This document shows, in pieces, positions 60,031 to 64,000 of a stretch of 64,000 nucleotides of DNA. The notes beneath the pieces are model-generated. The model did no database searches. It saw only the letters and a program-made list of their open reading frames with translations, and was not told where the DNA came from. Made by a program: the position numbers and the translations under genes. Positions within the stretch are counted from its first letter, which is position 1. Each line of letters opens with the position of its first letter. Location of the stretch: positions 180,148-244,147 of the forward strand of contig JAUIJE010000012.1 of the NCBI GenBank assembly GCA_030431455.1. The letters are read 5' to 3'. Source of the DNA: a bacterium (GTDB lineage: Bacteria > Myxococcota > UBA727 > JAUIJE01).

Positions 60031-60954
60031 ATGGGGATGAGCGATCCCTTCGCCGGATTTCCCGCGTTCGTCGCCGTGGCTGAAGAGGGCAGCTTCGTGG
60101 CCGCGGGCGAGCGCCTCTCGATTAGTGGGGCTGCGGTCAGTAAAGCGGTGGCCCGGCTCGAAGACGAGATGGGGGCGCGGCTGTTTGTGCGGACCACGCG
60201 TTCGGTGCGGCTGTCGCCTGAGGGGGCGGCGCTGCTGCCCGCGGCCCAGGCCGCGTTGCGGGCGGCCCAGGCCGGGCGGGAGGCGGTGGCGGTGCTGAGC
60301 GGGGCGGTCACCGGGCCGCTCTCGGTGTCGATGTCGCCGGTGTTGGGCCGCTACTTGACCGGGGGGTGGACCGACTTTCTCAGCCTGCACCCCGGGGTGC
60401 AGCTCGAGGTGCGGCTCTCGGACCGGCTGAGCCGGCTGGTCGACGACCGGGTGGACGTGGCCGTGCGCATCGGGGCGCTGAACGACTCGAGCTTGGTGCA
60501 GCGAAATTTGGCCGACACCCGGTGGGTCACCGCCGCGTCGCCGGCCTATCTCGCCCGGGCCGGCACCCCCGCGACGGTGGACGCGCTGGGCCGCCATCAC
60601 CTGGTGCAGTACCTTTCGCCCCGCGGCATCGCCGCCCCGTGGCACTTTGTCGTGGAGGGAGAGCGGGTCACGCCGCCGCTGGCCGCGGCGTTGCGCATCG
60701 ACCACGGGGACCTGGTGGTCCAGGCCGCGCGCGAGGGGGGCGGGGTGGTGCAGGCGATGGACTTCATGGTCGAGGAGGACCTGCGCGCGGGCCGCCTGGT
60801 CGAGGTGCTGGCCGACTGCGCGGCCCCGGGGCCGCCCATTCACGCCCTGTGTCTGCCCGGCCAGCGCCACACCCCGCGGGTGCGGGCGCTGATGGATCAC
60901 TTGTCGTCGAGGTTCGACGGGTCTGGCCGCAAGAAGAACGCGGTGATGGTGTAG
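60031..60954 (+). CDS. LysR-family transcriptional regulator
   Basis: A 307-residue protein with an N-terminal winged HTH (AFVAVAEEGSFVAAGERLSISGAAVSKAVARLEDEMGARLFVRTTRSVRLS) and a LysR substrate-binding domain (SVSMSPVLGRYLTG, DVAVRIGAL, VVQAAREGGGVVQAMDFMVEEDLRAGRLV). It probably controls the divergent F420-type operon. Its final 58 nt overlap the 3' end of the 2OG oxygenase gene on the other strand. Confidence 0.93.
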   Translation: MGMSDPFAGFPAFVAVAEEGSFVAAGERLSISGAAVSKAVARLEDEMGARLFVRTTRSVRLSPEGAALLPAAQAALRAAQAGREAVAVLSGAVTGPLSVSMSPVLGRYLTGGWTDFLSLHPGVQLEVRLSDRLSRLVDDRVDVAVRIGALNDSSLVQRNLADTRWVTAASPAYLARAGTPATVDALGRHHLVQYLSPRGIAAPWHFVVEGERVTPPLAAALRIDHGDLVVQAAREGGGVVQAMDFMVEEDLRAGRLVEVLADCAAPGPPIHALCLPGQRHTPRVRALMDHLSSRFDGSGRKKNAVMV

Positions 60955-61625
60955 CGCGGCCCGGGCGCGTCGGCGGCCACGTCGGTGACGGTGTGGCGCA
61001 CCCCCGCGGGCCGGAACACAAACGCGGTGTTGAACACCGGGGGCACGGCGATGACCGGTACCGTCCCCGCGGGCACAAACGCGAGCGCGCCCCCATGGGC
61101 GGCGGCGTAGCCCCGCGTGAACTGGAACACCACGGTCACGCCGTCGTCGAGGGTGTCCACGTGGGGGGCGAAGCCCTGGCCGGTGACCATGCGCGAGATC
61201 TGCACCTGCCGGGGCACCAAGCCGCGCAAGGAGGGGGGCGCGCCGAACAGGGCCTGTATCCATGTCACTGCACCGGCGCTGGCCAGCCAGGTGAAAAACC
61301 GGCCCAGCACCGAGCCCGGCGCGGGCCGGCGGCACACATCGATGCGGTAGGCCGCGTGGTGGTGGGGGGCGAACGCGGCCTGGGCGAGGTCTCTGGCGAT
61401 CGCCGCGGCCACCTCGGGGCGCAGCGCGGGGGCGAGCGAGAGGTGGGGCACGTGGGGCGCATGTTGGAACACCGGCCACAACCGGCGCGCGGGCCGACCA
61501 TGCACAAACGCGGGGGCGATGAAGGTCGCGGCCTGGTCACGCCTCTGCGCGTCCACGTCGAGCGAGCGGCAGAAAAAACCGTCCGGCGCGGTGGGCAACG
61601 GGGGCGCAGGGTCGTCCCAGATCAT
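60897..61625 (-). CDS. 2OG-Fe(II) oxygenase, probable graspetide tailoring enzyme
   Basis: A 242-residue protein with a prolyl-4-hydroxylase-type cupin motif: HVD (H155, D157), distal His211 in VRHTV and an Arg in PRYTITAFF. These bind iron and 2-oxoglutarate. It would hydroxylate or otherwise oxidise a substrate at an unactivated carbon. ATG 61625 overlaps the stop of the second ATP-grasp ligase (ATGA), so it is coupled to the graspetide enzymes. This suggests it works on the modified precursor, though that is inference. It overlaps LysR at the 3' end. Confidence 0.88.
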   Translation of the reverse strand: MIWDDPAPPLPTAPDGFFCRSLDVDAQRRDQAATFIAPAFVHGRPARRLWPVFQHAPHVPHLSLAPALRPEVAAAIARDLAQAAFAPHHHAAYRIDVCRRPAPGSVLGRFFTWLASAGAVTWIQALFGAPPSLRGLVPRQVQISRMVTGQGFAPHVDTLDDGVTVVFQFTRGYAAAHGGALAFVPAGTVPVIAVPPVFNTAFVFRPAGVRHTVTDVAADAPGPRYTITAFFLRPDPSNLDDK

Positions 61626-62578
61626 GCCGCCCCCCCGAGCAAAAGGCGTGTGAGCGCGGCGGTGACCGCGTCCTGCACGGGGGCGGGATAAAAACGGATG
61701 GCGGGCGCGGGGTTGACCTCGAGGAGCACGGGGCCGTCTGGGCTCTGCCGCACGTCGCAGGCCGCGTACAGCAACCCGAGATGGGCCACGGCTTTTGTGC
61801 AGAGCTGCCCGGTGGTCTCGTCCACCGCCACGGGCGTGGCCGAGGCGAGATTGTCGCGCGCGTCGATGACGTCGGTGGTGTCGAGCTCGGCGGCGGCGAC
61901 CACATGGCCGTTCACCACGTAGACGCGCCATTCGGGCCCAGGGATGCGGCGCTGAAACAGCACCGGCGCGTTTTGTAATTGGGCCAAGCGGACCTCGTCG
62001 AGGTCGGCCGGGGTGAGCAACGCGGCCTGGCCCCCGCCGGACAGGGGTTTGTAGATGACCCCCGCGTCCTGGTGCGCGGCGAAAAACGCGCGCACCGCGC
62101 CGGGGTCCGAGGTCCCGAGCGACGGGGGCACGGGCAGGCCGGCGCGATGCAGTTGCATGGCTTGGTCGAGCTTCTCGGTGTGGCGCAGCACCCGGTCGGG
62201 GGGGTTGACCACGGTGGTGCCGCGTCGTTCGAGCTCGAGCAGGGCGGTGCGCACCAGCGAGGCGCGTTCGCGGGCGGCCACGAAACGCGCGCGCAGGGTG
62301 CGGCCGTTGCGCTCCTCGACGTCGGCGAGGTGAGCGGGGGGGAACGAGAAGTACAGCTTGCGGACCAACAGGCCGCGCAGGCCGCCGAGGCTGCGATCCC
62401 CGAGGCGCACATCGTCGAGGTCGACGGTGAGGGCCAGGCGCTCGGGCACCGCCCGGAACCACAGCCGCACCACCTCGGCCCCGGCGCGTTCGAGCGCGGC
62501 GGCGTACACATCCGCGTCGGGGTCGTTCGGCGGGGCGAGCACCCCGACGCGCGGGGATGGCTCAGGCGAGGAGGGCAT
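61622..62578 (-). CDS. ATP-grasp ligase 2 (graspetide macrocyclase-like)
   Basis: A 318-residue protein with an N-terminal pre-ATP-grasp domain (RVGVLAPPNDPDADVYAAALERAGAEVVRLWF) and a C-terminal ATP-grasp domain. Its ATP-binding Lys177 is in IYKPLSGGG, and the metal-binding set is D275, E287 and N289 in LLEVNPAP. Graspetide ligases activate core Glu or Asp side chains as acyl phosphates for attack by Thr, Ser or Lys. Its ATG lies inside the upstream ligase gene (17-nt overlap). The neighbouring precursor supports this function. It has the same length as ligase 1. Confidence 0.87.
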   Translation of the reverse strand: MPSSPEPSPRVGVLAPPNDPDADVYAAALERAGAEVVRLWFRAVPERLALTVDLDDVRLGDRSLGGLRGLLVRKLYFSFPPAHLADVEERNGRTLRARFVAARERASLVRTALLELERRGTTVVNPPDRVLRHTEKLDQAMQLHRAGLPVPPSLGTSDPGAVRAFFAAHQDAGVIYKPLSGGGQAALLTPADLDEVRLAQLQNAPVLFQRRIPGPEWRVYVVNGHVVAAAELDTTDVIDARDNLASATPVAVDETTGQLCTKAVAHLGLLYAACDVRQSPDGPVLLEVNPAPAIRFYPAPVQDAVTAALTRLLLGGAA

Positions 62579-63518
62579 CGAGCAGTCGTGCGGTGATGGG
62601 GTGGCCGAGCTTGCGCTCGACATCGAGGTAGATGGGGCTCGAGTTGACCTCGAGGAACACGTAGCGGCCCTCGGCGGTGCGTTTGATGTCGACCCCGCCG
62701 AACACGAGCCCCATGGTGGACACGAAGCGCACCGCGTCGTGCGCGACGTCATCGGGCAGGGTGGCGTCCTCGTAGGTGATGCGGCCTGTGCGGTAGGTGT
62801 CGTCCTCGCGGAAGTCGAGCGTTCCGTCGGGCACATCGATGCCCGCGCAGGAGACGACCTCGTCCCCCACGACCATCACGCGCAGGTCTTTGCCGTCGAT
62901 GCGCTCTTGAAAGATCGCCGGGCTTTGGCGCAGGTACGCGAGGTCGTGGTCGGACAGCCGGTGCGCGTTTTGTGTGAGCGCGCCGCCGGCGGCGGGTTTG
63001 ACGATGGCGTGGGGGACCTCGTCGAGGAACGCGCGGGCCTCGTCCGAGCGGTTGGTGATCACGGTGCGCGGGTGGGTGATGCCCAGGCGCCGCAGGGTGT
63101 CGAGCTGGAATGGTTTGCGGCGGGAAAAATGCGACGCGCGCGGGTTGTTCACCAGGCGGCCCCCGCGGGCCTCGACGCTGAGCAGCCAACTGTAGAGCAC
63201 ATCGTGGCGGTCACGCTGCAGGCACGACCGCTGAAACCAGTTGGCGTAATCGGTGCGCCCGTCGACGGAGGCGGCGAACACCTCAGGGCCGGGGACCACC
63301 GCAGGCAGCTGTCGCACCAGCACCGCGTCGGCGTCGTCGAGCCGCACGCCGCTGACGGCAAGACCGCGCTCGTCCCAGGTCACGGCGTGGGCGGGTGATG
63401 TGGCGGTCGGCGACACGCAGTACAGCTCGACGTCGCGGCGGGCGAGGGCGTCGAGCAGATGTCTGGTCTGCACCATCGGGGCGTGGGCGAGCACAAAAAT
63501 GCGGCGTCGGCGGGTCAC
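62562..63518 (-). CDS. ATP-grasp ligase 1 (graspetide macrocyclase-like)
   Basis: A 318-residue ligase paralogous to ligase 2. It starts RRRRIFVLAHAPMVQTRHLLDAL and has ATP-binding Lys174 in AIVKPAAGG. Its D277, E290 and N292 triad lies in GVDIKRTAEGRYVFLEVNSSP. It should form ester or amide cross-links in the precursor. GTG 63518 is the chosen start because the in-frame ATG at 63581 lies inside the terminator stem. It is the first gene after the precursor. Confidence 0.88.
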   Translation of the reverse strand: MTRRRRIFVLAHAPMVQTRHLLDALARRDVELYCVSPTATSPAHAVTWDERGLAVSGVRLDDADAVLVRQLPAVVPGPEVFAASVDGRTDYANWFQRSCLQRDRHDVLYSWLLSVEARGGRLVNNPRASHFSRRKPFQLDTLRRLGITHPRTVITNRSDEARAFLDEVPHAIVKPAAGGALTQNAHRLSDHDLAYLRQSPAIFQERIDGKDLRVMVVGDEVVSCAGIDVPDGTLDFREDDTYRTGRITYEDATLPDDVAHDAVRFVSTMGLVFGGVDIKRTAEGRYVFLEVNSSPIYLDVERKLGHPITARLLDALLA

Positions 63519-63558
63519 AGCGGGGCCTCGGCGGAGGAGGTGCACAGGGTCGGGCCCA

Positions 63559-63588
63559 AGAAAAACGGACGGTGCGAACACCGTCCGT
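63559..63588 (-). terminator. Intrinsic terminator between precursor and ligase genes
   Basis: On the minus strand: ACGGACGGT stem (9 bp), 6-nt loop, ACCGTCCGT stem, then TTTTTCTT. It would end most transcripts after the precursor gene and let some read into the ligase genes, giving more precursor than enzyme. Confidence 0.8.
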
Positions 63589-63611
63589 GATTGGAAAGCC
63601 GCGGGGACGGA

Positions 63612-64000
63612 TCAGGTATCGCCGCCGTCTTCTTCCCCCACCGCCATGGTGGTGAACAGGCCGCCGTCTTCCTCGCCGACCGCTTCGGTGGTGAAGCCAC
63701 CATCCTCTTCGCCCAACGCCATGGTGGTGATGTCGATGGGATCGTCGGCGCGGACCTTGATGACGCCGCCGTCTTCTTCGCCGACGGCTTCGGTGGTGGC
63801 GCCGCCGCCACCGTCTTCTTCACCCAATGCCATGGTGGTGGCGCCGCCGCCGCCGTCCTCTTCGCCGAGGGCCTCGGTGGTGAACCCGCCGTCCTCTTCG
63901 CCGACGGCCATGGTGGTGACGTCGATGGGATCGTCAGCGCGGACCTTGATGACGCCGCCGTCTTCTTCGCCGACCGCTTCGGTGGTGGCGCCGCCGCCGC
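63612..64000 (-). CDS. Plesiocin-like graspetide precursor (5' end outside window)
   Basis: The frame enters from the right edge and stops at TGA 63612-63614. It has no Ser, Cys or Trp and contains eight TTxAxGEEDGG motifs: 63986-63954, 63917-63885, 63881-63849, 63839-63807, 63797-63765, 63728-63696, 63692-63660 and 63653-63621. The third residue alternates Glu and Met without a break. The motif fits TTxxxxEE, the core motif of plesiocin, in which two Thr form esters with two Glu. Two linkers VIKVRADDPID and short F, LF or GGA spacers separate motifs. The leader lies outside the window. The Met at 63911 is an internal residue and not a start. Confidence 0.9.
   Translation of the reverse strand, partial: GGGATTEAVGEEDGGVIKVRADDPIDVTTMAVGEEDGGFTTEALGEEDGGGGATTMALGEEDGGGGATTEAVGEEDGGVIKVRADDPIDITTMALGEEDGGFTTEAVGEEDGGLFTTMAVGEEDGGDT

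What the first reader, a model, noticed from the sequence alone, without database searches (positions are those of the whole stretch)
60897..64000. Plesiocin-like graspetide cluster with two ligases and an oxygenase
At least eight TTxAxGEEDGG motifs in one precursor, two paralogous ATP-grasp ligases of equal length and a 2OG-Fe(II) oxygenase are in one minus-strand unit with overlapping genes. Plesiocin, from the myxobacterium Plesiocystis pacifica, uses the TTxxxxEE motif and, to my knowledge, a single ATP-grasp enzyme. This set suggests a larger, further oxidised graspetide not described before.
Basis: partly seen in the sequence, partly recalled or inferred. Interest (0 to 1): 0.95.

Follow-up and report, generated by a model that had tools for sequence, protein, structure and literature searches.

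The report
Two-motif hybrid graspetide gene cluster
A bacterial gene cluster encodes a long repetitive peptide that carries two different motifs interleaved, with two ligases from different family branches that likely each close one motif into rings and an oxygenase predicted to hydroxylate one kind of ring; in the relatives examined the two motif systems sit in separate gene clusters.

Summary
In detail: 8 TTxAxGEEDGG motifs, two 318-aa ATP-grasp ligases and a 2OG-Fe(II) oxygenase lie in one minus-strand unit. The contig ends at 64000; another contig of the same genome begins inside what is very likely the other half of the precursor (start, ~195-aa leader, 5 more motifs). That resembles the substrate motif of corallotide (KIVADDP: Lys-Asp isopeptide by CorB, then Lys delta-hydroxylation by CorC; PMC13097080). 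Ligase 2 falls in the CorB clade (100/99), next to PsnB; the oxygenase is 30-42% identical to CorC-type enzymes. Of 22 other oxygenase loci in the phylum, 21 pair it with a ligase-2-type enzyme and a KxxxD[DE]P precursor, none with a TTxAxGEE array. Ligase-1-type loci carry TTxAxGEE arrays (15 of 35; 15 of the 20 closest), none a KxxxD[DE]P array. Ligases 1 and 2 as sisters is rejected (p-AU 5e-6). Best reading: a hybrid graspetide merging a plesiocin-type ester pathway and a corallotide-type hydroxy-isopeptide pathway on one precursor. Expected -36 Da per TT motif, -2 Da per KVRAD motif. Products are untested.

The parts
63612..64000 (-). 3' half of the precursor gene (frame 63612-63998, stop included), cut by the contig end; the likely other half (start, leader, 5 TT and 4 K motifs) is outside the window at L007:2-955 (-) = G000:C24:2-955
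   Evidence: 13 TTxxxxEE and 6 KVRADDP in the two halves together
63627..63986 (-). eight TTxAxGEED motifs: 63627-63653, 63666-63692, 63702-63728, 63771-63797, 63813-63839, 63855-63881, 63891-63917, 63960-63986
   Evidence: pattern search (contig positions minus 180147)
63739..63758 (-). KVRADDP (corallotide-type) motif copy 1
63928..63947 (-). KVRADDP (corallotide-type) motif copy 2
63565..63588 (-). terminator-like hairpin (10 bp stem, then TTTTTCTT) between precursor and ligase genes; possibly an attenuator that favours precursor over enzyme mRNA (inference)
62562..63518 (-). ligase 1, ATP-grasp, 318 aa; predicted ester ligase for TTxAxGEE
   Evidence: RimK PF08443 E 7e-13; tree; motif association
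61622..62578 (-). ligase 2, ATP-grasp, 318 aa; CorB clade; predicted isopeptide ligase for KVRAD
60897..61625 (-). 2OG-Fe(II) oxygenase, 242 aa (PF13640), CorC-like; H155, D157, H211 and R224 invariant in 20 aligned relatives; predicted Lys delta-hydroxylase of the closed KVRAD ring

Best explanation
This is a graspetide-type gene cluster whose precursor, read from two contig ends that very likely belong to one gene, interleaves at least 13 TTxxxxEE motifs, on each of which ligase 1 is predicted to make two Thr-Glu esters, with at least six KVRADDP motifs, on each of which ligase 2 is predicted to join Lys to Asp as an isopeptide that the CorC-like oxygenase would then hydroxylate on the lysine. 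A terminator-like hairpin separates the precursor from the enzyme genes (shown as sequence; its role, more precursor than enzyme, is inferred). Ligase 2 and the oxygenase probably act as a complex, as CorB and CorC do; in one same-order genome the two are a single ORF. The two ligases come from different branches of the ligase family, so the cluster looks like a merger of a TTxxxxEE pathway and a corallotide pathway onto one peptide. Shown: the motifs, genes, clade membership and the motif-enzyme association across loci. Inferred: substrate assignment, chemistry, order of steps, one gene across the contig gap. Unknown: leader removal, export and biological role.
For: Motifs: 13 TTxxxxEE and 6 KVRADDP, order TTKTKTKTK and TKTTTTKTTT on the two halves. 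Oxygenase search of 195 genomes of the phylum (own included): own + 22; 21 of 22 have a ligase-2-type gene and a precursor ORF with 2-8 KxxxD[DE]P, 1 of 22 (G121) is a partial oxygenase with neither, 0 of 22 have an ORF with two TTxAxGEE. Table of 63 loci: lig1-type 35 (TT array 15, K array 0, oxygenase 0), lig2-type 26 (TT 0, K 21, oxygenase 21), 2 without a ligase hit; Fisher 1.8e-10, loci not independent. Tree: ligase 2 in CorB clade 100/99; ligase 1 in another clade 99/98 with L087, whose precursor repeats TSQAVGEEDG. Sisters rejected (four long or doubtful rows left out of that tree). Ligase-oxygenase in one 587-aa ORF in G008 beside a KIRADDP precursor. Both ligases keep D, E and N of the ATP-grasp metal site (roles recalled). 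Oxygenase model matches PolD and PHD2 folds (mean pLDDT 74.9).
Against: The two precursor halves share no exact overlap of 8 or more bases at the contig ends, so one gene is inferred, not assembled. Ligase 2 is a long branch, 36-40% identical to CorB-type enzymes. Ligase 1's nearest relative (P0004, 70%) has no context. Leader similarity to CorA leaders is not significant, and the leader of L092, a TT-type precursor, scored higher than ours. 20 of 35 lig1-type loci show fewer than two TTxAxGEE motifs in an ORF within 3 kb; these include distant ligases, two of them beside microviridin-like cores. 5 of 26 lig2-type loci lack the K array; one of them (G006:C7) has a single KIRADDP with a CorB-like ligase and no detected oxygenase. 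No beta-lactamase, known transporter or peptidase family among 12 neighbouring proteins scanned; one of these had no Pfam match and one is a DUF3556 membrane protein. No chemistry was tested.
Confidence: 0.8

Rival explanations
1. Plesiocin-like cluster with duplicated ligases: both ligases act on TTxxxxEE (one per ester) and the oxygenase oxidises that motif; KVRADDPI is only a linker.
For: Both ligases have PsnB as best solved relative; TTxxxxEE is the more frequent motif.
Against: Ligase 2 and the oxygenase belong to families seen with KxxxD[DE]P precursors (21 of 22 oxygenase loci) and not with TTxAxGEE arrays (0 of 22); sister ligases rejected; plesiocin needs a single ligase for all links (PMC8939145, passage).
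Confidence: 0.1
2. Ligase 2 and oxygenase modify KVRAD, but the C24 half belongs to a second, separate precursor gene; the window has its own hybrid precursor. (Compatible with the main chemistry; it changes only the gene count.)
For: No exact overlap at the contig ends; repeat units differ in part between halves (GEEDDGGG and PPGHA only on C24).
Against: One half has a start and no stop, the other a stop and no start, same strand, both at contig ends; no other array found in the genome; nearest ligase match on C24 is 105 kb away. The window half alone already has both motifs.
Confidence: 0.08
3. Decayed or repurposed cluster: one of the ligases or the oxygenase is inactive and the product is a plain plesiocin-like peptide.
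For: Ligase 2 has a long branch (1.43 and 1.32 changes per column).
Against: Open frames, GC-rich third positions 0.88-0.91, catalytic residues kept in all three.
Confidence: 0.06

Closest known systems
Corallotide (CorA/CorB/CorC/CorD; graspetide group 15; PMC13097080)
   Same: Repeated KxxxDDP motif, CorB-clade ligase, CorC-type PF13640 oxygenase, gene order precursor-ligase-oxygenase
   Different: Here a second ligase sits between precursor and CorB-like gene and a second motif is interleaved; no CorD next to it; not Corallococcus (the paper found the group only there)
Plesiocin (PsnB ligase; graspetide group 2)
   Same: Tandem TTxxxxEE motifs (recalled) with two esters per repeat (PMC12291112 passage) in one precursor; ATP-grasp ligase
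   Different: Two ligases; ligase 1 lies outside the PsnB clade; oxygenase and KVRADDP motif
TTxAxGEEG array loci of related genomes (L162-L173, L176, L178; this work)
   Same: Nearly the same motif, ligases 41-48% identical to ligase 1, long arrays
   Different: Precursor on the strand opposite to the ligase, no K motif in it, no oxygenase match
Microviridin (two paralogous ATP-grasp ligases; PMC8939145 passage)
   Same: Logic: esters and an amide made by two ligases on one precursor (which ligase makes which is recalled)
   Different: Different core (TxKYPSDxED, recalled), interlocked rings within one core, other ligase lineage

Membership tests
Graspetide | ATP-grasp peptide ligase encoded beside the precursor | tested here: met
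   Best NCBIfam model TIGR04187 for both (118 and 78 bits, under the curated cut-off of 350); PsnB best solved relative
Graspetide | Precursor with leader and repeated Thr/Lys-Glu/Asp core motifs | tested here: met
   (leader on C24)
Graspetide | Side chain ester/amide links in the product | not testable with these tools
   needs mass spectrometry
Plesiocin group (group 2) | Repeated TTxxxxEE (motif recalled; hairpin repeats in the text) | tested here: met
   13 copies on the two halves
Plesiocin group (group 2) | One ligase makes all links (PMC8939145 passage) | tested here: not met
   two ligases of different clades
Plesiocin group (group 2) | Ligase in PsnB clade | tested here: not met
   ligase 1 in another clade (99/98); ligase 2 in the CorB clade, sister to PsnB
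Corallotide group (group 15) | Repeated KxxxD motif, as in CorA | tested here: met
   6 KVRADDP
Corallotide group (group 15) | CorB-clade ligase | tested here: met
   ligase 2, 100/99
Corallotide group (group 15) | CorC-type 2OG-Fe(II) oxygenase | tested here: met
   30-42% identity across two alignments, catalytic residues conserved
Corallotide group (group 15) | CorD beta-lactamase in the cluster | tested here: not met
   none among 12 flanking proteins scanned; called non-essential in PMC13097080
Corallotide group (group 15) | 5-hydroxylysine isopeptide in the product | not testable with these tools
   needs MS/NMR

The most novel reading that the evidence does not exclude
A natural two-code graspetide: two orthogonal ligase systems read two different motifs interleaved on one chain, giving a long polymer-like peptide in which Thr-Glu bicyclic hairpins alternate with hydroxylated Lys-Asp isopeptide rings; formed in evolution by merging a TTxxxxEE pathway with a corallotide pathway that relatives keep in separate clusters.
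Probability: 0.72. Interest if true: 0.82.

Novelty: new variant of a known kind. Interest (0 to 1): 0.72.

Why it matters
If true, it shows that graspetide ligases are selective enough to share one precursor without confusion, so motifs can be mixed as modules in nature. It gives a directly testable pair of ligases for what makes an ATP-grasp enzyme choose ester on TTxxxxEE or isopeptide on KxxxD, since the CorB and PsnB clades are neighbours in the tree. It also puts corallotide-type gene sets beyond Corallococcus (two Archangium MAGs and other Myxococcota records) and gives a fused ligase-oxygenase (G008) for studying the CorB-CorC complex.

Tried and rejected
Simple plesiocin duplication: rejected by tree and AU test. 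The tree left out four rows of the 74 (three with long branches and one partner). A further AU test (ligase 1 + ligase 2 + CorB as one clade) did not finish and is not used. Leader homology to CorA: hhalign probability 4.7%, E 0.008; 40 shuffles reached at best 2.5%; the L092 leader reached 14.2%; inconclusive. Same-strand search for TT precursors beside ligase-1-type genes found none in 20 loci (12 of them read by eye); a search of both strands found the motif on the opposite strand in 15 of 20. The phylum pattern TTxAxGEED (12 sites in the own array, one single site in each of two other genomes) was too narrow, since relatives carry GEEG; it does not show that the motif is unique. The one array motif it misses is TTEAIGEES on C24. 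Pattern for K[IMV][RS]ADDP: 19 sites in 8 of 195 genomes; 12 in the arrays of own, G104 and G008:C104, 1 in G006:C7 beside a CorB-like ligase, 6 single sites, of which I looked at two (own C26, G008:C36: ORFs with no array). Phosphotransferase (PF01636) 62 bp upstream of the precursor: no homologue at any of 65 loci searched, so not counted as part. Protein search with the C24 half (only the 7998 candidates sharing most words were scored): 7 hits; the 6 read (P0081-P0086) have TTxAxGEE-type arrays without KxRADDP, P0087 was not read. The oxygenase alone as protein query found only itself. No sigma-70 promoter match. Not used: second fold job, scans of viral contigs.
Full report
Observation. 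The minus-strand unit is as described: a precursor end (63612-64000), ligase 1 (62562-63518, 318 aa from a GTG), ligase 2 (61622-62578, 318 aa) and an oxygenase (60897-61625, 242 aa), with 17- and 4-bp overlaps between the enzyme genes. Pfam gives RimK/ATP-grasp for both ligases and PF13640 for the oxygenase. The NCBIfam model that fits both ligases best is the peptide maturase TIGR04187, below its curated cut-off.

The missing half. The window is G000:C20:180148-244147 and the contig ends there. A second contig, C24, begins inside matching repeats on the same strand, with an ORF of 318 codons open to its first bases: ATG start, about 195 residues of leader, then 5 TTxxxxEE and 4 KVRADDP. One half has a start and no stop, the other a stop and no start, and no other array was found in the genome. 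No exact overlap of 8 or more bases joins them, so the single gene is an inference, and 13 + 6 motifs is a lower bound if repeats were lost in the gap.

The second motif. The segments between many of the TT motifs are [VI][IV]KVRADDPI. Corallotide is modified at KxxxD: in the fragment NPDDGVIVKIVADDPLR the ligase CorB joins Lys9 to Asp13 and the 2OG-Fe(II) oxygenase CorC then hydroxylates the lysine delta carbon (PMC13097080; abstract and sections 7, 10 and 11 read, other passages seen). That paper found the group only in Corallococcus.

Oxygenase and ligase 2. A search of 195 genomes of the phylum (own included) with the oxygenase gave own + 22 at E <= 1e-5. In 21 of the 22 it lies beside a ligase that matches ligase 2 better than ligase 1 and beside a precursor ORF with 2 to 8 KxxxD[DE]P; the remaining one (G121) is a partial oxygenase with neither. 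None has an ORF with two TTxAxGEE. The 13 named loci are nine Corallococcus (one of them, L127, the remnant), two Archangium MAGs, a Myxococcaceae MAG and a Myxococcales MAG. In the last (G008, same order as the window) ligase and oxygenase are one 587-aa ORF. G006:C7 has a single-KIRADDP precursor with a CorB-like ligase and no detected oxygenase.

Ligase 1. Its closest relative with known surroundings (G004, 48%) lies beside an array of TSQAVGEEDG. One search listed 33 places in other genomes at E <= 1e-35; surroundings of 26 were fetched, 7 were not. In the 20 (36-48% identity) a search of both strands found at least one motif of this type on the opposite strand in 15, with up to 18 TTxAxGEE per ORF. 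Counting the 63 loci put into one table, ligase-1-type loci (35) have the TT array in 15 and the K array in 0; ligase-2-type loci (26) have the K array in 21 and the TT array in 0; two loci had no ligase hit. Fisher's p is 1.8e-10, but the loci share ancestry, so it is a description and not a test of independent events. G103 carries both systems in one genome at separate loci (L075, L162).

Tree. In a 44-row maximum-likelihood tree (8 of the 21 CorB-type ligases, 19 of the 20 loci; L180 left out, its genome hit holds a stop), ligase 2 is in the CorB clade (100/99), this clade with the PsnB clade is 100/98, and ligase 1 is in a separate clade with P0004, L087 and five further database proteins (8 rows, 99/98). 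PsnB is represented by residues 42-330. The TTxAxGEE ligases of the relatives form yet another clade (18 rows, 100/100), so the TT motif is served by several branches and the K motif, as far as sampled, by one. The 74-row tree gave the same two placements. Ligases 1 and 2 as sisters is rejected (p-AU 5.1e-6, 70-row tree).

Catalysis. D275/E287/N289 of ligase 2 and D277/E290/N292 of ligase 1 are invariant in their alignments (their role as metal site is recalled). The oxygenase keeps H155, D157, H211 and R224 in all 20 aligned sequences; its model (mean pLDDT 74.9) matches PolD and PHD2-type 2OG oxygenases. A 10-bp hairpin with a T run lies between precursor and ligase 1 (z-score of the whole 93 nt only -1.9).

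Novelty. Searches of the held library for corallotide, plesiocin, and graspetide with oxygenase, hydroxylysine, myxobacteri or macrocyclase listed no title or abstract that reports a precursor with both motifs; I read parts of three of these papers only, and most subscription papers are not held, so this is not proof. In the sequence data searched, no other locus or protein seen had both motifs as arrays. Microviridin already has esters and an amide made by two ligases (PMC8939145 passage), so the logic has a precedent; the combination of motif types, lineages and hydroxylation does not, as far as I found. I rate it a new variant of a known kind.

Noticed in passing
G000:C8 (L081:8194-11799): The same genome has a second graspetide cluster: two ATP-grasp ligases and a precursor ORF with ten microviridin-like cores (TxK[YFA]PSDxED type; core motif recalled). 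L083 (G008:C78) has a similar pair with TxKYPSD cores.
   Followed up: partly
L162-L173, L176, L178: Relatives carry TTxAxGEEG arrays, 2 to 18 motifs per ORF, on the strand opposite to the ligase gene.
   Followed up: partly
L076:2850-4613 (G008:C104): CorB-like ligase and CorC-like oxygenase fused in one 587-aa ORF, beside a KIRADDP precursor (470 aa from the start I chose) with a long non-repeat carrier.
   Followed up: partly
L148 (G006:C7): Single-KIRADDP precursor with CorB-like ligase and no detected oxygenase: would give an unhydroxylated isopeptide.
   Followed up: partly
L181:4459-4947 (G176): Small ORF with repeated TLAIPENPxD-type units directly before a ligase-1-type gene; possibly another core motif.
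   Followed up: no
L007:1018-2061 (C24): APH-type phosphotransferase 62 bp upstream of the precursor on the same strand; no homologue at 65 loci searched.
   Followed up: partly
L087: G004 locus has further repeat ORFs near the ligase (VTIQPIEEDDD and SLYFEGSEGSGEPV repeats).
   Followed up: no
G000:C24:105310-105948 (L082): A further lone ligase of this type in the same genome with neither motif array within 3 kb.
   Followed up: no
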